Shown one piece after another: positions 1-54,583 of a stretch of 64,000 bases of DNA (position 1 is its first letter; each line of letters starts with the position of its first letter). The stretch is taken from the NCBI GenBank assembly GCA_029582155.1, contig CM055897.1, positions 7,707,161 through 7,771,160 of the forward strand, written 5' to 3'. The notes under the pieces were generated by a model that was given only the letters and a program-made list of their open reading frames with translations, was not told the DNA's origin and searched no databases. A program made the position numbers and the translations under genes. Origin of the DNA: Panopea generosa (Eukaryota > Mollusca > Bivalvia > Adapedonta > Hiatellidae).

Positions 1-1920
1 GGTGATGACTTCCATTCTATTTAAGAATAAAGAGTTAATTAATCGTTCTACTGATTAGCCGCCTAAACAACTAAATTAACGTACATGTACTAAACTTCGA
101 TATCAAACCATATGAAAGTCTTATTGCACGAACATACAAATCGTGTACATGTATCAAATTGAATTTCGTTATTCATTCTCTGAATATCTTGAGTCACATG
201 ACATTTTTTTTATTGTGTAGTTTTCCCAAGGAAATATGCTTAATTATAATTATTCAACGGCAAAACTATCACATATACCTTTATCTTTACCATTAACATA
301 CAAGTCCTATGACAATGGTTACTGCATTATTAATAGCAAATATAAATCGAGGTACAGATAAACTATGATTTATGCAAATATGTTTTGTTGTTAATTGTGT
401 GTTTATGCTTACATATGCGTTTTATTACATTAATTAAATATATCTATCCCAGATATAATTTATATTAAATCAGTATATTTCAATTTTAATTATAAGAAAT
501 GACGGTTTTAAAATCACATTATCGCAAATTGAGACATTATTTTAAGCTTGTCTTTTTTTCCATCAAATAGCAGACATTGAATATATGAAGGAAATTAATA
601 CTTTTATTCCCGAGCAGGACAGAATGAACTCCACGATTCAAAGGAAGCAGAAATGATAACTCATTGGTGTCGGAGGAAGTAATGTATGAAGCCATATTAA
701 AGGGGCACATGGCATTTTTCAATACAAGCGTTTTATCAAATCTGAGAACTATAACTATATCTACATACTGTACATGGAATATCAAAGTATCATTTGCATT
801 GTTTATAACAGAACCTTACATTTTGACCGGGACTGGCTAGCCTAGTTGATAACAGATTTAACTGTCGTTAGAATACAATGGTCGAGTGTACTTATTATAT
901 ATTTTGTGCACTTTGTTCTTTAAGTTGAGGCAACGTATTGATTCAAGAGTAGACACGGTTATTTTAAGTTTTTAATCACAAAGTATTAATAGTCACAATG
1001 TTTTTGTTAATTGTGCTTCTCTTAGTGCGTCCCATACTCCGTGCAGTTCCACAAACATAAAATGCATTCCTTATTCGCTCTCCGCCTTCGTTTTAGCTCG
1101 ATCTTTGACAAAAAAGGATATGTACTCGGCATCGTCATCGGCGTTGCTTTTTCTGTTCCATTTTTTATGCATGCTCACATACTTCATCAACGTAACTTCA
1201 TAAAGTGAACTTTGGGGCAACCTTATTTTGATTTAGGGATAAGCATGGTTCCTTTTATACTTTGTCCAAGTATTATTATAAGATCATGTCTCAGTAACAC
1301 TAGTCACACATCAGTGAAAGTCACATACATGTAAACGTGTTTGGTATTTAATCAGTGTTTCGTCCTTTGGCCAACTAATCAAATGGTAACAGTAGTTTCT
1401 CGAAAAGTATTTTAAAGTGATATGACTCTTAGGGGGAAAAAAACTTAAAACTGACTGTTTGGACAGTTAGTCGTATTGCTATACATTAGAAAGTCATTTA
1501 GATTATATAATCATTTTGTTCGTCGTGCTGTCCATGTTCATGTTCTTTAGAAAAAACTCAATCGATTTGATTATCGCAAACCAACAATTATTTCCATTAT
1601 GACTGGTGTTATACAATCGCTTACATGCCAATCTAACTGCTGTTTTTTACTTAATTGATTTGTTCCATATAAAATAAAATTTTGAATAGCTGTTTAAATT
1701 GCTTCGTTCATGTTTAGTTTTTGTCTCAACTTTTGCCACATAATTATACAATATCATTTTGATTTAGATTAGTATAAAAATTGATTTATAGTTTGAAATC
1801 AAATCATTCTTAAATAAAAAGTGTTTTCCATTCTAACTTTATTTTCCATTCACTTATTCTTTTGAACTGATATTTTGTTAAATACAAAACCACAACTTAA
1901 TATACATCTACATCTATCAA
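1..1920. other. AT-rich stretch without recognised gene
   Basis: Only short chance reading frames are present. I see no exon with convincing splice sites, no domain signature and no tandem array. The stretch ends at the sharp outer edge of the large inverted repeat. Confidence 0.5.
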
Positions 1921-2867
1921 TCGTTTCAAATTTACCGATCCGACTGAAACATTTTCGTTGACAGTAAGATGCTTTTTTATCCATTTTAAATTTTTTTATC
2001 ATTTTTCGTGATATATTCGCTTTAAATGTAGCAAAATATCACATTGTTCGTTGATGATTTCAGGCATATGTCTTAAAACAAACAATTATGTTCATTCATC
2101 ATTAACATATTTATAATAAAATATAAGATACATGGGCATGTACGAATATGTTGAACCATACTGTCAGTAAATGTTGAGTGTCCTTATTATCTTCAATATA
2201 TAGCAGCTCTTTTCATAACTACTAAAAACATTCACATCGTCTTTCTCTCACACAATTGCACTTTCTTCCACACAATAATTCTTATAATTATTTTACTCTT
2301 CGTGAAACTTCGTCTTATTATAATACAGATATTTATATCTGCCAGGCATAATTATGATGGATATGATGATTATATATCTATTGACGCATTGTTCGTTAAG
2401 ATATATAAGTACTAGTTGTCTTGTACTCGTATATACACACATCACGAGTAAATGAGGTTATTGGACATGGTTATAGTAAGGTAAAATATGTACTCAATGC
2501 AGACTTAACTAACTGCTGTTGCACTAATAATGTAAGCAACATGAATAGAGTTCGCTGTTGTGTACTTATATGTAGGAATATGTTTGTATTGCAATGTTTT
2601 ATTTATCGATCATAAGGAAATATGTATGTTTACACTGGTATATATACATAATATGAAATGGTTCTATGAGTTTTCAATAATCATATCTATTTTCTACTTA
2701 AAAAAACATATTATAAATATATTTAATATTGCACGTTTACGAAGAGAGTTAAATTTAGTGATATAATTAAATAGATTATAAAACACTGCAATGCCTTTTC
2801 ATATTATTTTTTAAACCACCAGCTTTTACTGCCAGGGTAGTACATATTTTTAAGAGAAGACTTTCAA

Positions 2868-2995
2868 ATTACAACCCTACACTAGGCTATCTGCCGATTG
2901 TGAATTAATATTACAACACTACAATAGGCTATCTGCCGATGGTGAATTAATATTACAACACTGCACTAGGCTATCTGCCGATGGTGAATTATAAC
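2868..2995 (+). repeat. Three-copy 55-bp tandem repeat (left arm)
   Basis: Three units share the core TAGGCTATCTGCCGATGGTG followed by a TTAATATTACAACACT segment. The last unit is shortened. Confidence 0.85.
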
Positions 2996-4108
2996 AAAAT
3001 CAATGCATTGGGGACTGTGAAATTTTGAAAAAGGGTCATTTACTGAATTATATAAAAAAAAACCTGCCCCAGACCCATCTTGCAGCTTTTATGTGGCAGC
3101 AAGGGTTTTAAGGTCGGGATTGTACAGAGTTCGACAAGTTAAACACGCTAGAGATTGCAACATCCTGAAGACTGATGATTACGAACAAGTTATGAACATC
3201 AAAATTAGACAATTAGTATGGTAAACTCAGAAATCATCCAGAATGGTTAAACCAAACAGCGATTAGTATGATATAACTGGATGTTAAATTGGTTATGGTG
3301 TGATTTGTTTTTTTTTTGGCAGAAACTAGGTGTCCTTTAAAATATATTCCGTTATTAGCGTAACTTTAACTGGGATCGGCTATCTACAGAAAAATGTACT
3401 TAACCAGCAATTTTGTGTCGGACATACGAATATATCAACTGTCTGTCATTGACTTATATGTCGTTTGCTATTACTCCCAAGTATTACTACAGTATATTGT
3501 AGTAAATAAGCCAGATTCGCCCAGATTCTCTCACCTGATGTAAAACTTAATTGATATAATATGCTTAAATAAACTCGGCTTCCATTGAGACATATAGGCG
3601 CGTGCAAGTGTACTTATAAACTCTATATTATAACATTCCAATAGGTTTTTACCGACAAACCAATGATGACCCAGATAGGATGTACAACACATGCTCTATG
3701 TAAGTGACCAGCAAACTAGTATGTGAATTATGCAATAAAATATGTTTAAACCACCAGCAAATGCAAATTCTGAAATCTTACACATGAATAACAATCCGAT
3801 TCATTGAAAGATACAATAATGCAAACAACAAAAAAAATATAAACAAGTTTGCACGATTATCCCTAGTTGGCAATATGTCCTCTGGAACGTGCGACAAAGT
3901 CTTCATCATTTGATCCAGTGTACTCAAGGGCGATAATAGTCGTTCGCGCCATTTACAAAATATTTCGTGTTTCAAGATTTGTCGTCCAATTATGATCGTT
4001 GCTGATATTTTATTTAATGATCCATGCTTGTCGAAATTATTGATTTTAAGGCAAAATATGTCATAGTTGCTTGTGCAAACAAGCATAACGTGCACTTAAA
4101 CACATAAG

Positions 4109-4295
4109 TTTAAATATATATAATTTACTTCGATTACAAAACAAGTTATAATAACTTATACAGATCACCCACGAAGTATTCCTGGGTAGAACCAGTACTA
4201 GGCACATGCGTAAAACAGTGCTCAAGGACACAACACATAGCAATGGGAGATCTTGATTTCGGTGCTCCACTACTGAACCACGCGCTAACCCTAAA
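4109..4295 (-). mobile_element. tRNA-derived SINE, family A, left arm
   Basis: On the minus strand it starts GCGCGTGGTTCAGTAGTGGAGC, a box A-like head. It then runs through GTGTCCTTGAGCA and CCCAGGAATACTTCG to an AAGTAAATTATATATATTTAAAC tail. The same family is intact at 38,890-39,098. The box B part is eroded here. Confidence 0.75.
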
Positions 4296-4725
4296 ACAAA
4301 TATGCAAAAAGGGGTTTAACTTTGGCATTATTTAACGTTCCATTACCTTATACGGTCAGGTCAATTGAATTAAGAATGACCCATGCATAAATATTTTAGA
4401 TATATGTTATATTCTTCAACCAAAATCAAATTAAGATGTTATTGAAACAAATCACAACATTTTTAGATGCATGTACCCTCAGACAACATAACAACGAGAC
4501 ATGGCATAACTTATCCACCATATAAATACACCCGGATGTTTTAAAAGAAATATTTCTATTTTTAAATCTGATCAATAAATCCAACCAATAGCGTGTTTTC
4601 TTTGAGACGACGCTTAATCAATACTGTTTATTGTACTTGTGTAATTTGAGCTAGGCGTTTAGGCTAAACAAGTTTAAAGCTATAAGGTTGTTTGAAAAAT
4701 ATTCAATAATAAATAACTGTAAATA

Positions 4726-4774
4726 ATGGAAGTTACAATATTCGCGACAATCGCATTTTTCTCGATAGAATTAG
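4726..4774 (+). pseudogene. Exon 1 (signal peptide) of truncated D8C-gene paralog, left arm
   Basis: An ATG opens MEVTIFATIAFFSIEL plus one base, followed by a GTAAGT donor. The 16 residues are hydrophobic like a signal peptide. Exon phase (ends phase 1) and position relative to the next 30-bp exon match exons 1-2 of the intact minus-strand gene at 19,000-19,687. No later exons were found, so this is called a truncated paralog rather than a working gene. A 5' exon fused to something outside the window is not excluded. Confidence 0.55.
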
Positions 4775-5147
4775 GTAAGTTTCTTTTCTTATAATGAAAT
4801 AAATTGTTCGATGCATAGTAAATGGACAGGCCTAACTAAAATATAATTATTATTCTGTTTTGAACAATGCATTGTGATAAATCTTGTATAAATACAAGCA
4901 ATGTGGAAAGAATGAAAAACACTATCGTATCATCTACGTAGAATTTTTCAATAACAATAATACTTGACGGCAGGTAACATATAAATATAATAATGTGTTT
5001 TGTTTATCGCCGGAAACATATAAATATTGAAGTTATCTTTATCACATAGAGTACGCTACGCTACTTGCAAACCTTTTCCTGTTACCAAACACGTCTTCTC
5101 AGAGTGAAAATAAATATATATACAATTATGTAAATGCACGAAAGGAC

Positions 5148-5150
<3 letters not shown>

Positions 5151-5189
<39 letters not shown>
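5151..5189 (+). repeat. GA microsatellite (left arm)
   Basis: Nearly pure GA dinucleotide run between the two exon copies. Confidence 0.95.
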
Positions 5190-5190
<1 letters not shown>

Positions 5191-5547
5191 TATACCTCAT
5201 CCCATTATACACGCCTAGACTGCGTGTATCTTAATTAATTCACTATGTCAAAATACTACAGATTTGATAGTATGAATGAAGTCGGCATTGTCAAACAGTT
5301 TTACTTTAAAAACAGCAATTACAAATTGATCACGGTTAAGTATATCGTACTTAAACGGGTTCGTCATATTGTATATTTATTCTTCTCTTTATCTAGTTTG
5401 AAATCATGTCTATACTCGAAATATGTCGAACATGTAAATAGAAACTCTAGGAATTGCGAATTTGCAACACTTGATGCTACACACAGTATATATGTAATAT
5501 CATTTCAACGAATTCATTGACACCTTTAAATTGTTCGTACTTTGCAG

Positions 5548-5577
5548 GTTTCTTATGGGCATGTCCAACACATATAA
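5548..5577 (+). pseudogene. 30-bp exon 2 of truncated D8C-gene paralog, left arm
   Basis: Acceptor TTTGCAG and donor GTGAGT bracket exactly 30 bp, in frame with the signal exon: G-FLWACPTHI. The paralogous 30-bp exon of the intact gene reads G-LIQACSTIA. Length, phase 1/1 and the central A-C dipeptide agree. The intron between the two exons contains the GA microsatellite. Confidence 0.55.
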
Positions 5578-5715
5578 GTGAGTATTTTAATGATATTTGC
5601 ACGCATCAATTGATATGTAAAAAGTGTCGTATTTAGGCTAGATACAAAGCTAGTGCATATCTGAATAAATAAGTATAGATGTATTTAATATATTTGGTAT
5701 TAAAATAGAGTTTTT

Positions 5716-6778
5716 ATTGTAGAGTCGAATCCCCCGCCCGGCAACAATCTCCGTAATGATTGATAAACGACATTGTGTATCATTATCATTCGTCTCTCAC
5801 CACTGATTTAAGTGAAACAGTTATCAGTTACTTGCGGAGATGGGGTGTGCTCGAGTACTGGTTAATCCTAGGAAACAGTGGTTAGGATAACTGATCGTCT
5901 GTTAGCCCTCGATGGCATAAAAATGACACTAAATATTCAATCAATCAATCAATCAATCTGACACCGAGGCAGATATGAAAAATATCATTACCTTTTTGAA
6001 CAATACTTTCTCAACATGAAATGGACTTCGAATACTAGTACACTGCTTATCACTGTTTATCAGCACGTGTTAATGTACTAAACAATACAAGATTACGCAT
6101 CAGTCTGCCAGTTAATCTGACATTGTAGGTTTTTGTCATTATCTCGTTACATTACCATGACCTTGAACCGACTGTAAAGTATGTAGCTTGCAGAAAGAGA
6201 GTAAGTGTTCATGGTTATTAGTTATTAAACTGATTCTGTCACCGTGAATATACTGAAATGTGCAAATTGTCCTTCCTAGTGGTCCAATCCAATGTTTCGT
6301 TTAAACTTAATCAAATTATTAGGAAACTACTGCTTTTATCGAGATCGGGGTCATTCCTATAGTTACATTGGACTTTCATTATCCAAGTCGCATATGTCGT
6401 ATGATTGGTGCAGTGTTTTGCACACAAAACTTTTCTTTTTCTAAGGAAACATTTCTTTTGAGATTGTGTGACTTCACATAAGCTTGAATTTTGTATCGAC
6501 TCTAAATGGCTCGAATCTTTAAAATGGAATGAAAATGCCAATATCATGAAGAATATTTATAGTTACAGATGTAGATAGTAATCACAAGAATACATAGTTG
6601 TCATTTTACATTCACACTCAACGAATTTTATTTAGAGGTAAATTTATGTAATATACATATTTTGTTATTATATAAATTTGAAAACACAAAGCATGCATTA
6701 TGTTTTCAAGAAAATAGTGTCATATTTATTACGAATAATAATATATTATGTATATGTAATAGGAGACAAATTCAAATC
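5716..6778. other. Spacer of the inverted repeat
   Basis: This 1,063-bp single-copy spacer lies between the arms. Its left part is a SINE-like insertion with a CAAT-repeat tail. The remainder has no recognisable exon on either strand. In particular, no D8C-type exon follows the signal-peptide exons that point into it from both sides. Confidence 0.8.
5720..5960 (+). mobile_element. SINE-like retroposon with CAAT tail
   Basis: It begins with a box B-like GAGTCGAATCCCC, has a G+C-richer body containing TTGCGGAGATGGGGTGTGCT, and ends in ATTCAATCAATCAATCAATC. A short-repeat 3' tail and a tRNA-like 5' remnant are typical of retroposed SINEs. The 5' end (box A) is missing. Confidence 0.6.
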
Positions 6779-6916
6779 AAAAACTCTATTTTAATACCAA
6801 ATATATTAAATACATCTATACTTATTTATTCAGATATGCACTAGCTTTGTATCTAGCCTAAATACGACACTTTTTACATATCAATTGATGCGTGCAAATA
6901 TCATTAAAATACTCAC

Positions 6917-6946
6917 TTATATGTGTTGGACATGCCCATAAGAAAC
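6917..6946 (-). pseudogene. 30-bp exon 2 of truncated D8C-gene paralog, right arm
   Basis: Mirror copy of 5,548-5,577, with the same acceptor, donor and peptide. Only 138 bp separate it from the inner edge of the arm, so the next exon would have to lie in the spacer or the opposite arm. None is seen there. Confidence 0.55.
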
Positions 6947-7305
6947 CTGCAAAGTACGAACAATTTAAAGGTGTCAATGAATTCGTTGAAATGATATTAC
7001 ATATATACTGTGTGTAGCATCAAGTGTTGCAAATTCGCAATTCCTAGAGTTTCTATTTACATGTTCGACATATTTCGAGTATAGACATGATTTCAAACTA
7101 GATAAAGAGAAGAATAAATATACAATATGACGAACCCGTTTAAGTACGATATACTTAACCGTGATCAATTTGTAATTGCTGTTTTTAAAGTAAAACTGTT
7201 TGACAATGCCGACTTCATTCATACTATCAAATCTGTAGTATTTTGACATAGTGAATTAATTAAGATACACGCAGTCTAGGCGTGTATAATGGGATTAGGT
7301 ATACT

Positions 7306-7343
7306 CCCTCCCTCTCTCTCTCTCTCTCTCTCCCTCTCTCTCT

Positions 7344-7379
<36 letters not shown>
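7306..7379 (+). repeat. CT microsatellite (right arm)
   Basis: CT dinucleotide run pairing with the shorter GA run of the left arm. Interruptions CCC and CATT suggest expansion with imperfect units. Confidence 0.95.
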
Positions 7380-7382
<3 letters not shown>

Positions 7383-7755
7383 GTCCTTTCGTGCATTTAC
7401 ATAATTGTATATATATTTATTTTCACTCTGAGAAGACGTGTTTGGTAACAGGAAAAGGTTTGCAAGTAGCGTAGCGTACTCTATGTGATAAAGATAACTT
7501 CAATATTTATATGTTTCCGGCGATAAACAAAACACATTATTATATTTATATGTTACCTGCCGTCAAGTATTATTGTTATTGAAAAATTCTACGTAGATGA
7601 TACGATAGTGTTTTTCATTCTTTCCACATTGCTTGTATTTATACAAGATTTATCACAATGCATTGTTCAAAACAGAATAATAATTATATTTTAGTTAGGC
7701 CTGTCCATTTACTATGCATCGAACAATTTATTTCATTATAAGAAAAGAAACTTAC

Positions 7756-7804
7756 CTAATTCTATCGAGAAAAATGCGATTGTCGCGAATATTGTAACTT
7801 CCAT
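7756..7804 (-). pseudogene. Exon 1 (signal peptide) of truncated D8C-gene paralog, right arm
   Basis: Mirror copy of 4,726-4,774 with identical start, peptide and GTAAG donor, read toward the spacer. The two truncated paralogs are therefore convergent. Confidence 0.55.
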
Positions 7805-8234
7805 TATTTACAGTTATTTATTATTGAATATTTTTCAAACAACCTTATAGCTTTAAACTTGTTTAGCCTAAACGCCTAGCTCAAATTACACAAGTACAAT
7901 AAACAGTATTGATTGAGCGTCGTCTCAAAGAAAACACGCTATTGGTTGGATTTATTGATCAGATTTAAAAATAGAAATATTTCTTTTAAAACATCCGGGT
8001 GTATTTGTATGGTGGATAAGTTATGCCATGTCGCGTTGTTATGTTGTCTGAGGGTACATGCATCTAAAAATGTTGTGATTTGTTTCAATAACATCTTAAT
8101 TTGATTTTGGTTGAAGAATATAACATATATCTAAAATATTTATGCATGGGTCATTCTTAATTCAATTGACCTGACCGTATAAGGTAATGGAACGTTAAAT
8201 AATGCCAAAGTTAAACCCCTTTTTGCATATTTGT

Positions 8235-8421
8235 TTTAGGGTTAGCGCGTGGTTCAGTAGTGGAGCACCGAAATCAAGATCTCCCATTGCTATGTGTTGT
8301 GTCCTTGAGCACTGTTTTACGCATGTGCCTAGTACTGGTTCTACCCAGGAATACTTCGTGGGTGATCTGTATAAGTTATTATAACTTGTTTTGTAATCGA
8401 AGTAAATTATATATATTTAAA
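8235..8421 (+). mobile_element. tRNA-derived SINE, family A, right arm
   Basis: Mirror copy of the SINE at 4,109-4,295. Its presence at the same place in both arms shows that it inserted before the inverted duplication. Confidence 0.75.
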
Positions 8422-9534
8422 CTTATGTGTTTAAGTGCACGTTATGCTTGTTTGCACAAGCAACTATGACATATTTTGCCTTAAAATCAATAATTTCGAC
8501 AAGCATGGATCATTAAATAAAATATCAGCAACGATCATAATTGGACGACAAATCTTGAAACACGAAATATTTTGTAAATGGCGCGAACGACTATTATCGC
8601 CCTTGAGTACACTGGATCAAATGATGAAGACTTTGTCGCACGTTCCAGAGGACATATTGCCAACTAGGGATAATCGTGCAAACTTGTTTATATTTTTTTT
8701 GTTGTTTGCATTATTGTATCTTTCAATGAATCGGATTGTTATTCATGTGTAAGATTTCAGAATTTGCATTTGCTGGTGGTTTAAACATATTTTATTGCAT
8801 AATTCACATACTAGTTTGCTGGTCACTTACATAGAGCATGTGTTGTACATCCTATCTGGGTCATCATTGGTTTGTCGGTAAAAACCTATTGGAATGTTAT
8901 AATATAGAGTTTATAAGTACACTTGCACGCGCCTATATGTCTCAATGGAAGCCGAGTTTATTTAAGCATATTATATCAATTAAGTTTTACATCAGGTGAG
9001 AGAATCTGGGCGAATCTGGCTTATTTACTACAATATACTGTAGTAATACTTGGGAGTAATAGCAAACGACATATAAGTCAATGACAGACAGTTGATATAT
9101 TCGTATGTCCGACACAAAATTGCTGGTTAAGTACATTTTTCTGTAGATAGCCGATCCCAGTTAAAGTTACGCTAATAACGGAATATATTTTAAAGGACAC
9201 CTAGTTTCTGCCAAAAAAAAAACAAATCACACCATAACCAATTTAACATCCAGTTATATCATACTAATCGCTGTTTGGTTTAACCATTCTGGATGATTTC
9301 TGAGTTTACCATACTAATTGTCTAATTTTGATGTTCATAACTTGTTCGTAATCATCAGTCTTCAGGATGTTGCAATCTCTAGCGTGTTTAACTTGTCGAA
9401 CTCTGTACAATCCCGACCTTAAAACCCTTGCTGCCACATAAAAGCTGCAAGATGGGTCTGGGGCAGGTTTTTTTATATAATTCAGTAAATGACCCTTTTT
9501 CAAAATTTCACTGTCCCCAATGCATTGATTTTGT

Positions 9535-9660
9535 TATAATTCACCATCGGCAGATAGCCTAGTGCAGTGTTGTAATATTAATTCACCATCGGCAGATAGC
9601 CTATTGTAGTGTTGTAATATTAATTCACAATCGGCAGATAGCCTAGTGTAGGGTTGTAAT
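9535..9660 (-). repeat. Three-copy 55-bp tandem repeat (right arm)
   Basis: Mirror of 2,868-2,995, with the same three units in opposite orientation. Confidence 0.85.
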
Positions 9661-10719
9661 TTGAAAGTCTTCTCTTAAAAATATGTACTACCCTGGCAGT
9701 AAAAGCTGGTGGTTTAAAAAATAATATGAAAAGGCATTGCAGTGTTTTATAATCTATTTAATTATATCACTAAATTTAACTCTCTTCGTAAACGTGCAAT
9801 ATTAAATATATTTATAATATGTTTTTTTAAGTAGAAAATAGATATGATTATTGAAAACTCATAGAACCATTTCATATTATGTATATATACCAGTGTAAAC
9901 ATACATATTTCCTTATGATCGATAAATAAAACATTGCAATACAAACATATTCCTACATATAAGTACACAACAGCGAACTCTATTCATGTTGCATACATTA
10001 TTAGTGCAACAGCAGTTAGTTAAGTCTGCATTGAGTACATATTTTACCTTACTATAACCATGTCCAATAACCTCATTTACTCGTGATGTGTGTATATACG
10101 AGTACAAGACAACTAGTACTTATATATCTTAACGAACAATGCGTCAATAGATATATAATCATCATATCCATCATAATTATGCCTGGCAGATATAAATATC
10201 TGTATTATAATAAGACGAAGTTTCACGAAGAGTAAAATAATTATAAGAATTATTGTGTGGAAGGAAGTGAAATTGTGTGAGAGAAAGACGATGTGAATGT
10301 TTTTAGTAGTTATGAAAAGAGCTGCTATATATTGAAGATAATAAGGACACTCAACATTTACTGACAGTATGGTTCAACATATTCGTACATGCCCATGTAT
10401 CTTATATTTTATTATAAATATGTTAATGATGAATGAACATAATTGTTTGTTTTAAGACATATGCCTGAAATCATCAACGAACAATGTGATATTTTGCTAC
10501 ATTTAAAGCGAATATATCACGAAAAATGATAAAAAAATTTAAAATGGATAAAAAAGCATCTTACTGTCAACGAAAATGTTTCAGTCGGATCGGTAAATTT
10601 GAAACGAATTCCCCAATAGACCGTATTTAGATACAATTTTACGAACTTCATATAATCATTCGAACTCTTTCTAAGATGAAACCCATTTTACAACATGTAA
10701 GCATGTATAAATGATGAAA

Positions 10720-10830
10720 TTGAAATCAAAATGAAATCCCGTGACCCATTTAGTACCAATATTTTATACCCATTTTAAGCGGGAAATATAATTTAGTCTA
10801 ACCTAGGCGCGTAGCTCAAGTTAGGAAATC
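10720..10830 (+). repeat. Dispersed repeat, copy 1
   Basis: Shares AGCGGGAAATATA, the TAGGCG-x-GTAGC motif and CAAGTTAGGAAAT with the reverse complement of 15,240-15,365, at roughly 70 percent by eye. Family unknown. Confidence 0.5.
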
Positions 10831-11207
10831 CTTTTTCAATATATTATTTCGGCATGTTTAAATATATATCATATTAGCAATACGGGGCCAATGAGTATAT
10901 ATAGGCATGATATGTTTGAAAAATTGTTTTTTGTCAATTAAAATATTTGAAAAATTCTGATATATTCCTTTTAAATGAAAAATAAGCGTTCATTAAAATA
11001 TATTTTATTGTCAAGAGTTTGGAATATATGTTGATATTCGTTTATCTACACAATTTTAACACAGTTATGTAGATACATTCATGAAATGGCAGAATAATCA
11101 ACATTATGTCATTATAAGATGAAACGTTGTTACTCAAAACGACATAATTACAATAACAGCAAATAAAAACAAAATGATTTTACTCTGCCTGTGCAATTGG
11201 TAATCTG

Positions 11208-11213
11208 CATATA

Positions 11214-11258
<45 letters not shown>
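11208..11258. repeat. AT microsatellite
   Basis: About 25 AT dinucleotides preceded by GCATATATGC. Confidence 0.95.
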
Positions 11259-11263
<5 letters not shown>

Positions 11264-12471
11264 GTTCCTATATAAAGCACTTCTTCATTATAACAATTTT
11301 TAGTTGCTCCTAATTTTCAACATTGCCCTTTGAAGCATATTTGACAAAAAACACTTTATAATAAAACACATGCTGGTGCGGTCTTCCTTTTTCTCATTAT
11401 AATTGAGTTTAGTGTTTATTGAGTCCAGCCAATAAAATACATTTCTTGAAGCACAGGAACACTTTTATTTATTTCTTCAAGTCTTGAAATGGTTTTACAT
11501 CCACTTCTAAGATGTCCATCTTTTGTTTCGATTTGTACCTAAAGTAATATCAAAATAATTAGTTTCAAAACAATTCTCTACTTTATAAATGGTATGAGCG
11601 TTAATAAAATCCTCCCATCCTAATGTCGCCCTCTTCCCTAATGTGTATTCAACATATTACATTCCATCATTTTCCTTTTTTTTTAGTTTCGTTTTCTTTC
11701 ACATTCATCTTTACATTTCATATTTATTATACATGTTGCTATCTTGTATACTATACTAAGAATCCACAATTTTCATCAACTTTTGTGTAATCATGTTGTA
11801 TTACACAGAAAAATTGTATAAACGTGTCAAAACTAAAGTGACGTTTGCAGTTTATAAAACAATTACTGTTACCCAATTTACACTTACAACCATCACGTTT
11901 AATTATTTGTAGAACCATGACTTTATCATTATGAGAAAATATAGTCTGATTGGCTTGTGTGTAACTTTAATAGCTATTGAAAGGAAAGTTATATTCAGAA
12001 TATATAATCAAAATGATTAAAAAAGAGTATATGTATTGCGTTACGCATACTGGGGAGGTATTCATCAACAATTCATAAAAATGTTATTAGACTTGAACTC
12101 AAGAATCAATTTTGAAAAACACAGTTTGGGATCAATTTTGAAGCCAAAATGTGCAAGCATCTAATATTCAGTCAAATAAACTCTCACATGTATTATACCT
12201 GTCATGTTAAACTTGATATCTAAGGTTGAAATTTGAATTTTCAAGCCCAAGTCTAAAAATATTCTCAAGAAGTCATGTATTCATCATTATCATTCATGTA
12301 AGATCAAACATCTATATTACTTGACGTGATACAATTAATAGCTTGATTTCGCTATTGTTTCAAGAAATATTCAAACTAGAAAATATAATCAATATTCCGG
12401 AGAGAATATCACAAAAGCAAATGGTTAAGCAAAATAACTGAAAAACGTCACAGTTATTTTGATATGGACAC

Positions 12472-12562
12472 TTACACTGTTGTAAAATCCGTTGTAGTGT
12501 GTGCATATGTAGGCTTACTGTCAAACACGGGTTGGCTTGAAGTACCGGATTTTATGAAACTC
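12472..12562 (-). CDS. D8C gene exon 7: cytoplasmic tail and stop
   Basis: 91 bp, phase 2 start, acceptor ATTTAG. Encodes a Ser/Thr-rich tail with VFDSKPTYAH and the C-terminal DFTTV, then TAA at 12,474-12,472. Confidence 0.8.
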
Positions 12563-15500
12563 CTAAATAACAAAATAACAATAAAACAACATTTCAGTAA
12601 CTTACAAGTCCATGTATTTATTACCTGTTTGTCCAGTAGCTAACCATCACCATTTACTTTCATAAACAATACGTTAATTATTAGTTAGAATATAGGGCAT
12701 AGGTAGTGATTTGAATTTTATTTCATTTCTCAATTTTTAGTTTTACATATTAGATACTTACCAGTAACTAATGATATGTATCTGCTTGTAACGACAATTC
12801 CAAAGTTAATTATAGTTTTAAGAACGGTTATTGGCATGTCAAGTATATATTCGTAAGCAGTAACAATTTCGGGAATTAGAGAATTTTTTATCATAATTAT
12901 GTACATTTTTGCCTAAATGCTTTAAACTTTAAAGTCATTTAGTTGTATACTTGTATAAAATTTCTATGGCCATAGTGTATGTAAATATCGTTTTGGTAGG
13001 AACGACGGAAATGTAAGTACGGCTTGGACTTATGTGTACGACATCAGTTTATAAATAGCGCCAAATGTTGTTAATGTATTGTATTATATGTAAATTACCT
13101 CCTGAAATACCGTGTGACAACAATAAGCACGATAGCAAAGATAACAGTACAAATCGAAACTGCAGTAATGACGGCCGCCATTTTTTTCTTCGAACAGTTT
13201 TTCTCCCTCCTTGGTATATCTGGAACATCTGGAATTTAATTATGAGACTTTGTAAAGCAGATAATCAATAAATATAAACGTAATGTATGTAAACACACAT
13301 GATTGTTTGTAAGCCAGAAGCTCAGCACCCGCTGCCAAGCCCCGACATCACAAAATTAGTACATACATCCGTTATGTTGTTTTAGTATACAATTGAGCAA
13401 ACTACCGAGTATAAGTAAAATGACGTACCTAAGTTTATTTGTGAAGCTGAACCAGGTTTTTTTCTAAAAATGGTATAAAAATATTTCACTTGTTATCGTT
13501 TTATCATGTGTCGTCAGGAGGTATACCGACCTTGTGTGAGCCCGTAAACCAGGGACCCGTTTTACCAACCTTTGTATGTCTTAAGAATTTCCAACGAACA
13601 AATTGTGACATCTACGAACGTTTCATGTGTACAGTACATTTGAAAATGGTAGAAAGACTTTTTTATAAGGCTTAAAAATATCGTAAAATATAAATAAGTG
13701 ACACACTAAATGAATTTCCCGACAATTTTCATAACTTCAAACTTACGAACACATTTAGTTAAACGGTCACATGGTTTACACTCGCTTGTGACGATCTTAA
13801 TACTTACCGTTTTAAGACGGTGACCGTGTTGTCAGTGCTGCTGTATGCGTCAATGTATTGTGTGTTTTATGATTATTTTGTATAGTGTCTATGTTAAAAT
13901 GTTATTCTACATTATTGGATATGTGTTTTATATCCCACGTCGCCTGATGAACATTTATTTGATTAGTTTGCGACTTTATATGATAAAGGCTTTACCTATG
14001 CATGGGGAAACATTACAGAACTTGAAGACAATTAGAGACTCATATGATTTAGGCACTGCCTACACACGGACAAACATTACAGAACTTGAAGATATTTTAA
14101 GACTTCATATGATTTAGGCATTGCCTATACACGGGGAAACATTACAGAACGTGAAGACAATTTGTGACTCGTATGATTTAGGCACTGCCTATCCATGGTG
14201 ACACATTACAAAACGTGAAGACAATTTGAGAGTCATATGACTAAATCACTGCCTATACAATAGGTACACATTACATAACTTTTTCATTTGATAGTTTGTT
14301 AAATTTTCTCTTTTTTGACTTCTTTATTCAGACGTAGACGTTATTTGCAGAAGGCGGTAAAAATTTGACCAGATCTCCTAAGAAGACTTTCACTAACATA
14401 ACTTAACCGCGTTTAAACACAAATGGCTGTACATCAAATAGAAGGTCTTTATTTCATAGTATATTGTACATGATAAGTATATATACCCATGTTGTCATCT
14501 ACGTGATCTGATTCTCCCGATTCAGCCTCGGTTGTAGTTGGTGCAGTGGTAGTTAGTGGTGGACTCTCTGTAGGAGACAATGTGTACATAATTGATGATA
14601 CTTATAATCGTCCCATTACAGAAATAAGGTACCAAGTGTATATGAAATAAGAAGGCACTTAGTACCTTTTGCACCAATGGGGCGATATGTTAGTTTGACA
14701 GTCTTGTTGACAATTACGATAAACAGCAACCAATAACTGTAGCATAAAATAATGTGACTCAGACCGATAATCTTAATCAATAACCACATAAACTCAAGTA
14801 CACTGATGCGTACAGGAACTGTTCAATATTTGCATAGTATTGCACAGTAGATCTATATAATATGAACATTTAAAGTTGCAATGTATCTTGTCATGATTAT
14901 TAAAAATGAAACGTGTACATAATTGATACGTAAATGTTAGTTCATACATCAGGAATGTATTTGCCAGTAAGTTTACAAGTAAGACAAAGAGCAATAACTG
15001 GTGAACAATGTTACTCAGTTTGCTTTTATTCAGTAACCACGTACACGATATCACACATGCTTACAGTAAAATGTTGAATATTTACATAATGAGTATTTCA
15101 AAGGAGATTTACCAGGAATATTCAGACTTTTAAAATTGGTTAAAAACATTTCACCCAATATATAATGCCTTTATATACTCATTGATACCGTATTGCCAAA
15201 AGTATATCTATTTAAACATGCACATATAATATATCAAAAATGAATTTCCTAACTTGGGCTACACGCCTATGAATATATAAATATATTTCCCGCTCAAAAG
15301 TGCAACATAGTTTGTGACGTATTAAATGAGTCACATGACTTCATTTTGATCCGTTATACACAGAAACGGCTCACGTATTTCAGTTTAGAGAGGCGCAATT
15401 CAAAATCTGAACGTGCACACTTTTTTCAGTAGAAATATAGTGAATTTTAATAAAGTACACGAATTTATGAGGTGTGTCTATGTGGTTGGGGAGGGGGGGG

Positions 15501-18500
15501 GAGGGGGGAAACAGTGCGTACGCCAGTATTTTAAAGAGTAGAACCACCATTGATACAGGCTTACACATAGTAAAAATTGTTTCATATTTGAAAGAGTCCG
15601 AATGACGTCACCAGTATTTAATTGCTGTTTTTTTTAGAATAAGAAATTTGTTTCAAGTTTACCACTCCAATTTAAATATCAATTTTCTCACGTTTAGGTG
15701 GATTTGACATGCCAAACCATTCGGATTATATTCTATTAATAATAATGAGATGCTTTTTATGAATTTCAATGATTATTTTTAAGACATTTATAGCGGTTTT
15801 TCCTGGCATACTCGTTTTAAGCTGCAATGTATTGGACAATAATGCATAATATTTAAATAATAAAAAAGAAATTTAACTGATATAACCTTGGTCATATATC
15901 TTACTACATCTCAAATACATAATCAAAATGCAAGAAACATGTTATTTGTTTATTATATCTTTTTAAAAGGGACAGCAATCGTGTAAATACTCTTGCTAAC
16001 GTTTAGCACACTTGATAAAGTGATACCCTTCCTGATGTACAAGAGATGTCGGGCATGTTGCTGCAGTAGGGCTTTGTTGAGATAAACGATAAAAAATATA
16101 AATTCAAATTTGGCTTATTGAAAATCACATCGTCAAGTATTTAACATACAAGAAGACAGAACCAGTGACATGGTATTAATTGTTTACACGCACTGTGTGT
16201 GTATTGGTATAATTAACATTACATCGTAACAAGAATGCCAATACATAAAGTTAATTAAACTATCAATCAAGTAAATAGCAAATGACGTTGAGTGATTATG
16301 ACAGTGATTGTGACGGTCGTCCACCACGAAAGGCGACAGACGTGACCCTGGCGATGTTTTGCATACACATTGCAACTGACCTAGTGTATATTTTCGATTA
16401 AGTATAAATATTTACACAAAAAAGTATAAAAATATATTTAACTAACCAAAACAGAATCTTTGTGCACAGCCCGTAGGTAATTGGTCCCAACAATACACAT
16501 AATGGGATGCGCAGGTTTTCATCTTCATGTTAAATGTTTTCTGGCACAAATCAGTAAAGGTTACCAAACAAGCTGATCTGGCAACAACTCCGTCAGATTC
16601 TCCAGGGAGTGTTCCTAGTAATTAAACAACATTTGTATGAATTGTATTCCATTAAGTGAAATACAACACTACGCTAACACGGGAAATCCTTAAACAATTG
16701 AATAAAATAAATAATTTACTTGTACTCTAACGGTATCGCTAGCGATATTGTTTTACTTTTATCAAATAACCATGTAAAACCCATTTGAAGAAAAACTATT
16801 TATAAGTAGTGGATTTTATTAAAAAAATTGTATTTGTTTATAAGTGTTGTGTTATTATAAACAATTGCAAACAATCGAACAAGTATTTTCAAACAAAGTT
16901 AAAATGTATAGTTTTTGGTTTTATTTGTTTTTATATGTGCCAGGGCTAATTATACCAGGGAAGTAGGTTTATGTCAGAATAATACCATTCATCCATATTG
17001 GATAGATTGTCCCGCATGATTCAGTTTCCACGATGGTTGTTGTTATGGCGTAGTCAAACCCATACCACGTGTTGTCCTGCATGTTAAACTTGTCACAGTT
17101 GTCTCCACTGCCGCATGCTGGACATCGATTTATTTGTTCAGGAAGTGGCGTGTAGTTATTAGCCAGACATGGGTCTGTAATATCAATCACATATTAACTG
17201 CAACATATATATTTATATTTACAACATATGAACGAACTGTTATCCTGTATATAAACACATGAACCAATAACATGTATATCATATAATAGCTATATCATTA
17301 AAGTATGGACCGGTAACACATAAACCGATATGTAACTTAAACACATAGATCCTTAACATATATATATATATATATATAATAGGTACCACTAACTGTTGGA
17401 CGGATTACACATGAATCAATGTGCACCATTCACACATAGACAGATGAAACAGTTACCAATAAGTGGCATGGGTACATGGAACGCTGACACATATGTCAAT
17501 ATGTACCGCTAACACATGGACAGTTAACATATACATCACCATGATCCGTTAAAGCATACACCAATATATTCTGTTAGCACCTGAGCCGTTAACACAAATA
17601 TCACTTTGTACCATATATCACAATGAAACATATATCACTAAGTACCGTTTACACATGAATTGTATACACATATTTTAATATGTACCGTTGACATATATAC
17701 CATTACACATATATCAGTATGCTCGTCGAGACATTAAACATTAACACATATATCAGGATCGTCAATACATACAAAGGTATGTATTGTTTGCACATGTAAT
17801 ACATGTATAAATATACAACGTTAACGCATGAACCGTTAATACATACTTACATGCGCCATTAACATTATCATTCAGGGGACACATCTTTCTGGTTGAACTT
17901 TGTTTAACTGTACATAATAATTGCCAATAATGATAGGATTACAAAGTTTAATTCTTTATATTATATAAACCCTAAGGGTATCTCATTTCTACCATTTGTT
18001 CCCCTAATCAGGTCATACTATATTGTACCATTGCCAGCTTATTTTATTTTGTTATTTTCACCAGAACAAATCAACATTTGTGTTTTTAATTTAAGTATTG
18101 TTTGTTAACACATGTTGAAACCGTGCCAATTCAAAACGGTATCTGTTTGCAAATATTGATTTTTATGTTAAGGGTCGTGTTATAGAGAGGTAATACTGAG
18201 TTCTAACGTACTGATTACCTATCATTGATATTCACTGTTTTTGAAATTGTATTACATTTTTGCAATCAACAAATGTTCTCAACGGTTAAGTTTGTAAGTG
18301 ACTGTCAGCATCAGGCTATGAACATGTACATGCTTACTATAATATATAGAAAGATAATAATTTGTGAACAACCAAGATATTAATGTACAAACCAGACTAC
18401 GGCTAGTGCGCCTAGCTACAATGCAAACCATATATACAATATCTAGGCCTCTGCCAAATCAATAAATTTGGTGTCGACTATGACTTATATACTATGGAAT

Positions 18501-19687
18501 TACATGCAACACATCTGGACAGGGTGGATAAATTTACATATATGAACTGATAGCTTTATGTGAGTGGGATCCAGTTAAGGATTCATGACTACTCACATGC
18601 TATATAAAGGACATATTTATAAACCCGTTGGATCATATAGATACAGTGAATTCATATGTTTAATTTCATAAAGGGAGATAATTATATATATATATAATGG
18701 GGTTTGGTGCCAATTTCAACACTGTTCAGATCATATATGGCATATCCAGTTACATTGGCAGAGGACGATCTCAGAATGAATCTGAGTAAAACCACTGTCC
18801 TTATGCAAGTAACAGGCAAATTTTTGAAGCGAGTCCCGACATGACCATTTGTAGTATTCTCAATCATGACACATCCGGGTACGATTTGTACTAATTCTGC
18901 CAAGGAAGATATCCAGTGGTATGTCTGAGTTGTAAGAACTTGTTTAACAATCAATGGAAAACGAAAAGATTTAAATAAAACCCTATAATGTACACTTACC
19001 AGCTATCGTTGAGCAAGCCTGTATAAGACCTGAAATATAAACCATGCGTTATTGCGCAAAGATTATTTGAGATAGGTCATTTATATTAATACAATTATTT
19101 GTTAATTGGTACTATTATAACTTATATGAATTTCTAATCTGATATACGATTTGTAACAACTTTTTTTACTTAAAAAATGATTGTCAAAATAAATACTGAC
19201 TAACAATATAACATATAAATTCCATTTTTTACATCTTCATTTTCGAATCCTTGAATATAATGAGTTGTAAATCTTTTATTGTATAATTTATTCTCAATAA
19301 AAGGGAGAAATAATTTATCAATGTGTATAAAGATATGTATTGAATCAGTTGATGATCATTCACTTCATAACGTAATAGTATTACTACAAAATCGACAAAT
19401 ATTTATCCAGTTGTATGGGATAGGAAGACGACCTCAGACTGAATCTGAGTAGAACCACTGTCCTACCGTATGTAACTGGCCAACTTTCTCACATAAAGTT
19501 TTTTGAACGAGCGGGACTCGAACTTACGACATTAGCGGTGATAGGTTAGTGATCTTGAGACGGAACCTTAGATCATACGGCCGCGCTAGACCCTTTATAG
19601 ATTTTCTATTTTTACAATAGTCGACTTACCAAAGTGAACGATGAAAATTCCTAATAAGAAAATACAATATCCCAAGCTAAACGCCAT
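12472..19687 (-). CDS. D8C-domain single-pass membrane protein (7 exons)
   Basis: Rebuilt from seven GT-AG exons: 19,687-19,630, 19,029-19,000, 17,174-16,986, 16,614-16,447, 14,567-14,487, 13,219-13,099 and 12,562-12,472. Together they give 738 bp, an unbroken frame and 245 residues. Order: signal peptide (1-20); D8C domain (about 30-148) with the family signatures DPC..NY, NTWYGF, CGTIYPIWMNG, DGVVARSAC and HYVYCWD; a Thr/Pro/Glu-rich linker (149-175); helix 190-210 preceded by KKK and followed by RYFRR; and a 30-residue tail ending FTTV, which fits a class I PDZ ligand (S/T-x-hydrophobic). D8C is the eight-cysteine module of uromodulin, GP2 and VWDE proteins, extracellular and linked to carbohydrate or microbe binding in known members. 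Function here is inferred. The domain has about two cysteines more than the usual eight. Introns carry SINEs and tandem repeats. Truncated paralogs of exons 1-2 lie in the palindrome. Confidence 0.82.
13099..13219 (-). CDS. D8C gene exon 6: transmembrane helix
   Basis: 121 bp, starts phase 1 and ends phase 2. IPRREKNCSKKK precedes a 20-plus residue hydrophobic segment (AAVITAVSICTVIFAIVLIV) followed by TRYFR. Acceptor TTCCAG, donor GTAATT. Confidence 0.85.
13429..13463 (-). other. Cryptic 35-bp exon-like segment
   Basis: Acceptor ATTTTTAG and donor GTACGT bracket 35 bp between exons 5 and 6. Included, it shifts frame: read from phase 1 it hits TAA after nine codons. It is left out of the model. 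It could be a poison exon or chance. Confidence 0.3.
13975..14275 (+). repeat. Intron tandem repeat, ~62-bp unit
   Basis: About four to five diverged units of the pattern ACATTACAGAAC-TGAAGACAATT-GACTCATATGATTTAGGCACTGCCTA, in the intron between exons 5 and 6 of the D8C gene. Confidence 0.85.
14487..14567 (-). CDS. D8C gene exon 5: Thr/Pro/Glu linker
   Basis: 81 bp, phase 1/1, peptide SPPLTTTAPTTTEAESGESD and onward to DDNM. Low-complexity Thr/Pro suggests an O-glycosylated stalk. Donor GTATAT. Confidence 0.75.
15240..15365 (-). repeat. Dispersed repeat, copy 2 (inverted)
   Basis: Inverted relative to 10,720-10,830 and inside a D8C-gene intron. It has the same core blocks GAGCGGGAAATATA and CCCAAGTTAGGAAAT. 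Confidence 0.5.
15488..15511 (+). other. G-rich tract
   Basis: Runs of four to ten G separated by single A bases inside otherwise AT-rich intron DNA. The pattern is compatible with a G-quadruplex. Confidence 0.6.
16447..16614 (-). CDS. D8C gene exon 4: second half of D8C domain
   Basis: 168 bp, phase 1/1. Contains DGVVARSACLVTF, MKTCASHYVYCWD and the closing C-x5-C pair. It completes the domain across the intron at the W-x-NG-x-x-P-x-x-x-DG joint. Confidence 0.9.
16986..17174 (-). CDS. D8C gene exon 3: first half of D8C domain
   Basis: 189 bp, phase 1/1. Starts DPCLANNYTPLPEQINRC and ends with the CGTIYPIWMNG signature. Acceptor ATTACAG. The last G is followed by the donor GTATTA. Confidence 0.9.
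17235..17875 (+). repeat. Degenerate ACCGTTAACACATATATCA array in intron
   Basis: Many imperfect copies of a roughly 20-25-bp motif (TGTACCGTTAACACAT, ATATATCA) between exons 2 and 3 of the D8C gene. Strong divergence suggests an old array. Confidence 0.7.
18750..18860 (-). mobile_element. SINE family B remnant
   Basis: Shares GACGATCTCAGAATGAATCTGAGTAAAACCACTGTCC with the fuller copy at 19,418-19,600. A 90-residue open frame across it is therefore not treated as an exon. Confidence 0.6.
19000..19029 (-). CDS. D8C gene exon 2: 30-bp exon
   Basis: Acceptor TTTCAG, donor GTAAGT, phase 1/1, encodes G-LIQACSTIA. Same length and phase as the 30-bp exons in the palindrome arms. Confidence 0.8.
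19418..19600 (-). mobile_element. tRNA-derived SINE, family B
   Basis: On the minus strand the head reads GGTCTAGCGCGGCCGTATGA (box A-like) with box B-like AGTTCGAGTCCC. The body ends near ACTCAGATTCAGTCTGAGGTCG. Located in intron 1 of the D8C gene. Confidence 0.75.
19630..19687 (-). CDS. D8C gene exon 1: start and signal peptide
   Basis: ATG then MAFSLGYCIFLLGIFIVHF and one base, donor GTAAGT. The strongly hydrophobic core fits a secretory signal. Ends phase 1. Confidence 0.85.
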
Positions 19688-25357: not shown

Positions 25358-25975
25358 TGTCGATGATGATTATGAAACGTGTCTTCCGTGATGACGTAGT
25401 TATGACGTAGTAATGATGTCGATGGTGATTATAAAAACGTTTCTTGCGTGCTGACGTAGTAATGATGTCAATGATGATTATAAAACGTGTCGTGCGTGAT
25501 GACGTAGTAATGATGTCGATGATGATTATAAAACGTGTCTTGCGTGATGACGTAGTAATGATGTCGTTTATAAAATGTATCTTGCGTGATGACGTAGTAA
25601 TGATGTCGATGATGATTATACAACGTGTCTTGCGTGATGACGTAGTAATGATGTCGATTATGATTATAAAACATTTCTTGCGTGCTGACGTAGTAATAAC
25701 GTAGTAATGATGTCGATGATGATTATAAAACGTGTATTGCGTGATGACGTAGTAATGACGTAGAAATTATGTCGATGATGATTATAAAACGTGTCTTGCG
25801 TAATGACGTATGAATGATGTCGGTGTTGATTATAAAACGTGTCTTGCGTGATGACGTAGTAATGATGTTGATGATGATTATACAACGTGTATTGCGTGAT
25901 GACGTAGTAATGACGTAGTAATGATGTCGATGATGATTATAAAACGTGTCTTGCGTGATGACGTAGTAATGATGT
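25358..25975 (+). repeat. Minisatellite with TGACGTAG in each unit
   Basis: About 13 units of roughly 47 bp: GATGATTATAAAACGTGTCTTGCG followed by TGATGACGTAGTAATGATGTC. I count about 14 TGACGTAG sites plus one TGACGTAT. Some units have the TGACGTAGTAA block doubled. The core resembles a CRE/ATF half-site. Confidence 0.95.
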
Positions 25976-53430: not shown

Positions 53431-53714
53431 GATAGTAGTAGTAGTAGTAGATATAGTAGTGGTAGTAGTAGTAGTAGTTGTAGTAGTAGTAGTAGTAGTA
53501 GCAGTAACAGTAGCAGTAGCAGTAAAAGAAGCAGAAACAGCAGCAGCAGCAGTAGCAGTAGTAAAAGTAATAGTAGTTGTTGCTGATGAAGTAATAGTAA
53601 TAATTGCAGAAGTAATAGTTGTTGCAATTTTTGTAGTAGTAGTAGTAGTAGTAGTAATACAAGAAATAGTAGTAGTAGTAGTAGATGATGTAGTTGAAGA
53701 TGAAGTAAAAGTAA

Positions 53715-53759
<45 letters not shown>

Positions 53760-53896
53760 AAGTAGTTGTAGTTGTTGTTGTAGTAGCTGTAATAGTAGTT
53801 GTAGTACTACTAGTTGTTGCAATAAAAGTATTAATCATAGTAATAGTTGTAGTAGTAGTAGTTATAGCAGCAGTAGTAGTAGTAGTAGTAGAAATT

Positions 53897-53944
<48 letters not shown>

Positions 53945-54335
53945 ATAGTTGTTGTAGTAGTAGTAGTAGTAGTAGTAATAATAGTAGTAGCAGTTGTAGT
54001 AGTAATAGTAAGAGTAGTTGTTGCTGTTGAAGTTATAATAATAATAACAGTAGAATTAGTTGTTGTAGTTGTGGACGAGGAAGAAATAGTAGTAGTATTA
54101 GTAAATGTAGATGATGTAGTTGTAGATGCAGTAGAAGTAGTTGTTGTAGTTGTAGTTGTGGAAGAAATAATTGTAGTAGTGAAGTAATAGTATATGATGT
54201 TGTTGTAGATCCAGTAGTAGTAGAAGTAGTAGTAGTAGTAGTTGTAGTAGTAGTAGTAGTAGTAGATGCTGTAGAAATAGTAGAAGTAGAAGTAGTAGTA
54301 ATAGTAGTAGTAGTATAAGTAGAAGTAGTAGTAGC

Positions 54336-54371
<36 letters not shown>

Positions 54372-54386
54372 TGTAGTAGAAGTAGC

Positions 54387-54439
<53 letters not shown>

Positions 54440-54533
54440 AAGTAGTAGTAGTAGTAGTAGATGCTGTAGAAATAGTAGAAGTAGTAGCAGTTGTAATAGT
54501 AGTAGAAGTATTAGTGGAAGTAGTTTTAGCAGC

Positions 54534-54583
<50 letters not shown>

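What the first reader, a model, noticed from the sequence alone, without database searches (positions are those of the whole stretch)
1921..10607. Giant near-perfect palindrome (3.8-kb arms, 1.06-kb spacer)
The arms are almost identical over 3.8 kb with crisp ends, and differ mainly in microsatellite length. Such structures are unstable unless recent or maintained by arm-to-arm gene conversion. It sits beside a gene whose 5' exons are copied in both arms.
Basis: seen in the sequence. Interest (0 to 1): 0.75.

Follow-up and report, generated by a model that had tools for sequence, protein, structure and literature searches.

The report
Young interrupted palindrome that beheads gene
In an animal chromosome, a 3.8-kb stretch that seems to hold the start of a gene was copied backwards beside itself, most likely while a broken chromosome was being repaired, and the join cut away the next part of that gene; the two copies are still almost identical because the event looks young.

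Summary
The palindrome is in the assembly at the stated coordinates: left arm 1921-5715, spacer 5716-6778, right arm 6779-10607. The arms differ by 9 substitutions in 3793 aligned bases, a 2-base indel and a 36-base AG-run difference. Only the two arms match the arm core at full length among the 40 scored of 3,074 candidates.

Relatives show the order of events. 39 of 45 matches of a MITE-like element run through the right arm's outer end, and a C4 paralog links distal right arm and right flank. A C1 relative joins spacer to right arm and keeps a SINE whole, with a D8C-like exon about 0.3 kb beyond; in the window that SINE loses its head where the left arm begins. So the right arm is original, the left arm a later inverted copy, and the far side of the SINE was lost.

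Best reading: a break-repair (fold-back) inverted duplication with deletion, beheading a putative D8C-family gene fragment. Three of three polarisable differences are new in the left arm, so gene conversion is not needed. Inner-junction microhomology is not seen, and an assembly chimera is not excluded without reads.

The parts
1921..5715 (-). Left arm: derivative inverted copy of the right arm
   Evidence: its outer end stops inside a MITE-like element and its inner end abuts a broken SINE
5716..6778 (.). Spacer (single copy between the arms), 1,063 nt; begins with the broken SINE
6779..10607 (+). Right arm: the original sequence
   Evidence: first 215 bases contiguous with the spacer in the C1 relative; outer end continuous in the MITE-like family; distal part and flank linked in a C4 paralog
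5717..5958 (+). SINE remnant (tRNA-type head missing at the left-arm junction); 3' target-site copy TGACACCGAGGC at 5959-5970
   Evidence: the same insertion is whole, with both TGACACCGAGGC copies, at about C1:79256060-79256370
10508..10968 (.). MITE-like element (termini GCGAATATATCA / TGATATATTCC, flanked by TTTAAA) spanning the right arm's outer end; absent from the C4 paralog
   Evidence: classification by termini is inference
1921..2020 (.). First 100 bases of the same element, cut short at the left arm's outer end
7756..7804 (-). Putative exon 1 (MEVTIFATIAFFSIEL, signal-peptide-like) in the right arm, donor GTAAGT, phase 1
   Evidence: no transcript evidence
6917..6946 (-). Putative 30-nt exon 2 in the right arm, phase 1 to phase 1; compatible with the D8C-like exon on C1
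   Evidence: sequence
4726..4774 (+). Copy of putative exon 1 in the left arm
5548..5577 (+). Copy of putative exon 2 in the left arm
   Evidence: sequence
10969..11417 (.). Right flank, collinear with the distal right arm in the C4 paralog (up to 7627026)
1..1920 (.). Left flank: no relative found that shows its ancestral neighbour
16986..17174 (-). D8C-like exon of putative gene A, whose putative first exon is 19630-19687 (-) and whose likely VWD/EGF exons lie 50-67 kb left of the window
   Evidence: the gene model is inference

Best explanation
The palindrome is a young inverted duplication with an accompanying deletion. Shown by comparison: the right arm with its spacer and right flank is the ancestral arrangement, and the left arm is a later inverted copy joined to a SINE that lost its head. 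Inferred mechanism: the chromosome broke within the SINE. The exposed end to the right of the break was resected and folded back with a loop of about 1.06 kb. Repair synthesis copied 3.8 kb of the right arm outwards, stopping inside a MITE-like element, and the new end was then joined to the left flank. Sequence between the SINE head and the left flank, including a D8C-like exon, was lost from this place. Inferred consequence: a 5' fragment of a D8C-family gene (signal-peptide-like exon plus a 30-nt exon) now stands twice, the copies facing each other, with its D8C exon gone. The arms stay alike because the event is recent, not because something maintains them.
For: Right arm is original: of 45 matches to the outer-boundary query (40 scored of 7,684 candidates), 39 run through 10607/10608 unbroken, most of them entering the arm by 15-37 bases, 1 is the locus itself, 1 is the left arm and stops there, 4 do not cover the point. 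The C4 paralog at 7625914-7627026 keeps 9834-10501 of the right arm and the right flank linked, without the MITE-like insert. The C1 relative joins spacer 5725-6778 to right arm 6779-6993 at about 90-95% identity. Left arm is the copy: the same SINE insertion on C1 has its head and both TGACACCGAGGC copies, while the window SINE is cut at 5716/5717. Deletion: the C1 sequence left of the SINE, D8C-like exon included, gave 2 matches, C1 itself and gene B's D8C-like exon; of 9 protein matches to that exon genome-wide, none lies at the left side of the palindrome. Young: 9 substitutions in 3793, and 3 of 3 polarisable ones are derived in the left arm. The spacer of 1,063 bp is inside the 766-70,466 bp range (median 3,428) of sequenced human fold-back inverted duplications (PMC3907307, passages).
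Against: No exact inverted microhomology is visible at the inner junction, whereas of 21 sequenced human junctions in PMC3907307 13 show 2-8 bp, 3 lie in longer repeats and 5 have insertions; here one base (5716) may be filler. The break-side ancestral sequence is known only through a relative 5-10% diverged. The outer junction cannot be read because the ancestral left flank is unknown. The C4 paralog covers only about 0.7 kb of the arm and the C1 relative only 0.2 kb; nothing outside tests the middle 2.8 kb. The human and yeast cases are far larger and mostly involve chromosome ends. No reads, no second haplotype, no transcript.
Confidence: 0.6

Rival explanations
1. Replication template switching (microhomology-mediated break-induced replication, or an ODIRA-type inverted triplication later reduced) made the inverted copy, without a fold-back at a free end.
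For: Gives the same end product: an inverted segment with a spacer and a deletion. PMC10766186 argues that inverted duplications with deletions derive from inverted triplications by secondary rearrangement (passages). The lack of visible microhomology at the inner junction does not favour fold-back.
Against: No third, direct copy of the arm was found (two full-length matches among 40 scored), so a triplication step would have left no trace. Sequence alone hardly separates the two.
Confidence: 0.23
2. Assembly or library artefact: a chimeric or fold-back read, or a haplotype misjoin, produced the left arm.
For: Inverted chimeras are common in amplified long-read libraries, and missed adapters also make palindromic reads (PMC6218980, passages). 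Arms are 99.76% alike. The assembly has gaps of 500 and 5000 N near by.
Against: A read folded directly on itself would not give a 1.06-kb single-copy spacer with two different outer flanks. The arms differ by 9 substitutions and two length differences, three of the substitutions polarised as new in the left arm. The two left-arm ends cut a SINE and a MITE-like element at unrelated points, and the stretch is 152 kb without a gap. None of this replaces reads.
Confidence: 0.12
3. An old palindrome whose arms are kept alike by gene conversion, as on mammalian sex chromosomes.
For: Nine differences fall in loose clusters, but not beyond chance (p = 0.09-0.12 on three measures). Conversion can hide age.
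Against: All 3 polarisable new changes are in the left arm, so these stretches have not been homogenised since. The C1 relative, 5-10% diverged, shows the unbroken site, which puts the event after that split or on another allele.
Confidence: 0.04
4. A large transposon with 3.8-kb terminal inverted repeats.
For: Long inverted ends around a unique centre.
Against: Only two full-length copies of the arm core among the scored matches, no target-site duplication at 1920/10608, and the right boundary is no boundary in 39 of 45 matches.
Confidence: 0.01

Closest known systems
Fold-back inverted duplications with a disomic spacer in people (PMC3907307, passages read, abstract included)
   Same: Inverted copy separated from the original by a short single-copy spacer, with loss of the sequence beyond the break; spacer length in the same range
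   Different: Here 3.8 kb and interstitial, healed to a local flank; no visible inverted microhomology; found in a reference genome and not as a patient's rearrangement
Break-induced inverted duplications in yeast (PMC10622511, passages read)
   Same: Break followed by foldback priming is the proposed route
   Different: There the duplications are much larger, through dicentric intermediates, with short inverted repeats at the centre
Inverted copy number variants explained by ODIRA (PMC10766186, passages read)
   Same: Interrupted palindrome with a secondary deletion
   Different: No trace of a triplication
Sex-chromosome palindromes kept by gene conversion (PMC6790999, search listing with start of abstract only)
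   Same: Near-identical arms with gene sequence in them
   Different: Three of three polarised changes lie in one arm here; no sign of maintenance
Hairpin RNA loci that make endogenous siRNA (PMC10317233, search listing with start of abstract only)
   Same: Inverted gene copies could be transcribed into a hairpin
   Different: No transcript or small-RNA evidence here, and no further full-length copy of the arm core as a target

Membership tests
Fold-back inverted duplication with spacer and deletion | One arm original and one an inverted copy, with a single-copy spacer between | tested here: met
Fold-back inverted duplication with spacer and deletion | Loss of sequence on the far side of the break | tested here: met
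   SINE head, 5' target-site copy and D8C-like exon missing from this place
Fold-back inverted duplication with spacer and deletion | Inverted microhomology at the spacer/inverted-copy junction | tested here: inconclusive
   0 bp exact at 5715/5716 against 6778/6779, one possible filler base; break-side sequence known only from a diverged relative
Fold-back inverted duplication with spacer and deletion | Arises after a double-strand break | not testable with these tools
   history only; no pedigree or reads
Gene-conversion-maintained palindrome | Arm-to-arm identity far above what the age of the duplication allows | tested here: inconclusive
   age is bounded only from above by the C1 split; 3 of 3 polarisable changes sit in one arm
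Gene-conversion-maintained palindrome | Palindrome shared by related species | not testable with these tools
   the tool states that this genome has no relatives here (note)
Transposon with long terminal inverted repeats | Target-site duplication at the outer ends | tested here: not met
   flanks ...ctatcaa and attcccc...
Transposon with long terminal inverted repeats | Further copies with the same ends | tested here: not met
Read or assembly palindrome artefact | No or minimal spacer and no independent differences between arms (feature recalled) | tested here: not met
   1,063-nt spacer, 9 substitutions
Read or assembly palindrome artefact | Abnormal read support at the junctions | not testable with these tools
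   no reads

The most novel reading that the evidence does not exclude
The inverted copy is a young, possibly still segregating structural allele. It places two copies of the same gene start facing each other, about 3 kb apart, inside an intron of a related gene. Transcription from either start would run through the spacer into the other copy and make a hairpin RNA with a stem of about 1 kb, while the original start, in compatible phase and in the host gene's direction, could act as an alternative first exon that skips the D8C domain. The palindrome would then be a natural gene-control switch born in one repair event.
Probability: 0.08. Interest if true: 0.65.

Novelty: new member of a known kind. 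Interest (0 to 1): 0.36.

Why it matters
Long interrupted palindromes are mostly discussed as disease or cancer rearrangements or as sex-chromosome structures. Here a small one in a reference genome can be read step by step, because two repeats lie across its ends and two relatives keep the ancestral junctions. It gives a worked example of how an inverted duplication with deletion can enter an animal genome and break a gene fragment, and a site where persistence of a palindrome could be tested in a population. Gene presence-absence variation is reported as massive in a mussel (PMC7653742, search listing only); if this animal is a bivalve, as I suspect, events like this one are a plausible source.

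Tried and rejected
Transposon with giant terminal repeats: rejected. Gene-conversion clustering test on the 9 differences: not significant. First gene idea, that the arm exons are the start of the VWD gene whose 3' half lies at C4:7639788-7657395: dropped, because a better-placed start (SP-like exon 19630-19687 with D8C-like exon 16986-17174) fits that gene, and the C1 relative points to a D8C-like exon of the gene-B type for the arm exons. A scan for signal-peptide-like starts with a donor gave 7 rows in 29 kb, so exon 1 alone is weak evidence. Domain names: single-exon Pfam scans put EGF and Sushi of the window's gene B above the curated cut-off; VWD is below it (19.7 of 22.9 bits), and 4 of the 10 exons scanned gave no family. 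D8C is only hinted at: window exon 16972-17193 gave nothing at E 5, gene B's exon gave PF23283 at E 0.034 below cut-off and an unrelated zinc finger at E 0.017; against solved structures ribosomal uS4 scored best (E 0.0068) and GP2 second (E 0.11). So 'D8C-like' rests on weak matches and on my recall of the family. Rfam and tRNA scans of the window found nothing; the tRNA-type SINE head is read by eye from copies. A 74% match of window 8145-8280 to C4:7622450-7622583 is in the other orientation and was taken as a repeat. Species not named; a bivalve is inferred from repeats and composition only, from memory. Papers: PMC3907307, PMC10622511, PMC10766186 and PMC6218980 were read as passages; the others cited were seen in search listings only. 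Searches for bivalve or mollusc palindromes showed none like this by title and start of abstract among the 20 of 124 and 12 of 177 papers listed; that is not proof of absence.
Full report
OBSERVATION. Inverted-repeat search gives blocks 1921-3060, 3051-5190 and 5151-5715 pairing with 9468-10607, 7340-9479 and 6779-7343; blastn and MAFFT agree. Arms are 3795 and 3829 bases long. In a global alignment 3793 bases pair, with 9 mismatches, a 2-base gap in an A run and a 36-base gap in the AG run. The arm core (window 3100-5100) has 40 scored matches (of 3,074 first-look candidates) in the window's own genome: two are full length, the two arms, and the other 38 are pieces of about 130-190 bases of a dispersed repeat. 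In the 284 kb of this genome I could hold, the only inverted pairs of at least 500 bp above 90% identity are two pieces of this palindrome (63 rows of at least 200 bp for C4, the 25 longest printed, 0 rows for C1).

WHICH ARM IS THE ORIGINAL. Outer end: a query of window 10400-12600 found 45 matches (40 scored of 7,684 candidates). Thirty-nine run across 10607/10608 without a break, most entering the arm side by 15-37 bases; two of the 39 lie side by side on C16 and may be one element. One match is the locus itself, one is the left arm and stops there, and four do not cover the point. The sequence there is a repeated element, 10508-10968, with termini GCGAATATATCA and TGATATATTCC, flanked by TTTAAA. 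A paralog at C4:7625914-7627026 has the distal right arm (9834-10501) joined directly to the right flank (from 10970) through a single TTTAAA, so the element was inserted in this locus and the link between right arm and right flank is ancestral. The left arm carries just the first 100 bases of the element and then stops.

INNER END. The spacer and the first 215 bases of the right arm (5725-6993) have a relative at C1:79256131-79257861. It is about 90-95% alike and interrupted once by an insertion of about 470 bases there. So the spacer/right-arm link is ancestral too. On C1 the SINE at the far side of the spacer is whole: TGACACCGAGGC, tRNA-type head, body, CAATCAATC tail, TGACACCGAGGC. In the window only the body, the tail and the second TGACACCGAGGC (5959-5970) remain; the SINE homology stops at about 5717 and the left arm's homology at 5715. 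A missing head alone would prove little: of nine other copies printed, five or six show a head, and L034, 94% alike, shows only its last bases. The shared insertion site on C1 is what counts.

WHAT WAS LOST. About 0.3 kb beyond the SINE, C1 has an open exon, DPCLVGYYKELPNQSNRCPGCGVGSQCDKFG..., with an AG acceptor and a GT donor. It is 83% identical in protein to an exon of gene B at C4:7789345-7789542 and 63% identical to the window exon at 16986-17174. Resemblance to the D8C domain of uromodulin and GP2 is weak by score (Pfam PF23283 E 0.034, below cut-off; GP2 structure E 0.11, with unrelated uS4 scoring better) and is partly my recall. The C1 sequence from this exon up to the SINE gave 2 matches, itself and gene B's exon. 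A protein search gives 9 matches: one on C1, three on C4 (7724144, 7789345, 7833776), and five weak ones on C6 and C11. None lies on the left side of the palindrome. So the ancestral continuation is absent from this place in the assembly. The size of the deletion is unknown.

GENE CONTENT. In the right arm, on the minus strand, ATG...TTAG (7756-7804, MEVTIFATIAFFSIEL) is followed by GTAAGT, and 6917-6946 is a 30-base exon between AG and GTGAGT. Both junctions are phase 1, as is the D8C-like exon on C1. Exon 2 and its splice sites are kept on C1. There is no transcript evidence, and starts like exon 1 turn up by chance (7 rows in 29 kb). No substitution between the arms falls in either exon. 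The neighbouring genes form a minus-strand cluster. Gene B has Sushi and EGF exons above Pfam cut-off and a VWD match below it. Gene A has its likely start at 16986-19687; nine of the 17 window exon queries have a relative at C4:7639788-7657395, seven at 40-50% and two at 32-36% identity, and I assign these to gene A. If gene A is one gene, the palindrome lies in one of its introns; this is inference.

AGE AND MAINTENANCE. Nine substitutions in 3793 are 0.24%, against roughly 5-10% to the C1 relative and about 15-16% to the C4 paralog. Three differences can be polarised with the C4 paralog, and all three are new in the left arm. Spacing of the nine is not more clustered than chance. A recent event explains this without gene conversion; three sites are few, and conversion in the other stretches cannot be excluded.

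MECHANISM. The human fold-back class has a single-copy spacer (766-70,466 bp, median 3,428) and loss beyond the break (PMC3907307, passages). Yeast work supports foldback priming after a break (PMC10622511, passages). Spacer, deletion and one-sided copy fit. The inner junction shows no exact inverted microhomology, which weakens the case for fold-back over template switching or a reduced ODIRA product (PMC10766186, passages). I put the order of events near 0.9 if the structure is real, and fold-back with that order at 0.6 overall. On re-checking I moved 0.02 from this to reflect how little of the arm the relatives cover.

ARTEFACT. Amplified or adapter-missed reads make palindromes (PMC6218980, passages). 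Against this here: the long single-copy spacer, two unrelated cut elements, differences between the arms, and a 152-kb gap-free context. Reads would decide.

VERDICT. A real-looking, young, interrupted palindrome of a known kind, with an unusually readable history and one broken gene fragment. Moderate interest.

Noticed in passing
C4:7589991-7618794 (88-117 kb left of the window; loci L023-L026): Array of mostly 1,023-1,026-bp units, 26 matches of a 460-bp core in a row, running into a 500-N assembly gap at 7618795; the core's relative is at C1:79259659.
   Followed up: no
window 53433-55377, 42949-44920, 34985-36645, 25402-25975: Very long imperfect tandem arrays (3-bp TAG/GTT over 1.9 kb, 12/27-bp, 23-bp and 48-bp units); the first three would lie in introns of putative gene B.
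   Followed up: no
window 27776-48000 (-), 16986-19687 (-), C4:7639788-7657395 (-), C4:7833776: Tandem cluster of D8C-like/Sushi/EGF/VWD genes on the minus strand, with a dispersed 5' fragment on C1.
   Followed up: partly
C4:7771795-7776794: 5,000-N gap starting 635 bases after the window's end.
   Followed up: no
window 48958-49755 (-): 266-residue open frame that reads like the tail of a retroelement protein (recall); no Pfam match at E 5.
   Followed up: partly
C1:79256567-79257036 (L036): Insertion of about 470 bases splitting the C1 relative of the spacer; possibly a mobile element.
   Followed up: no
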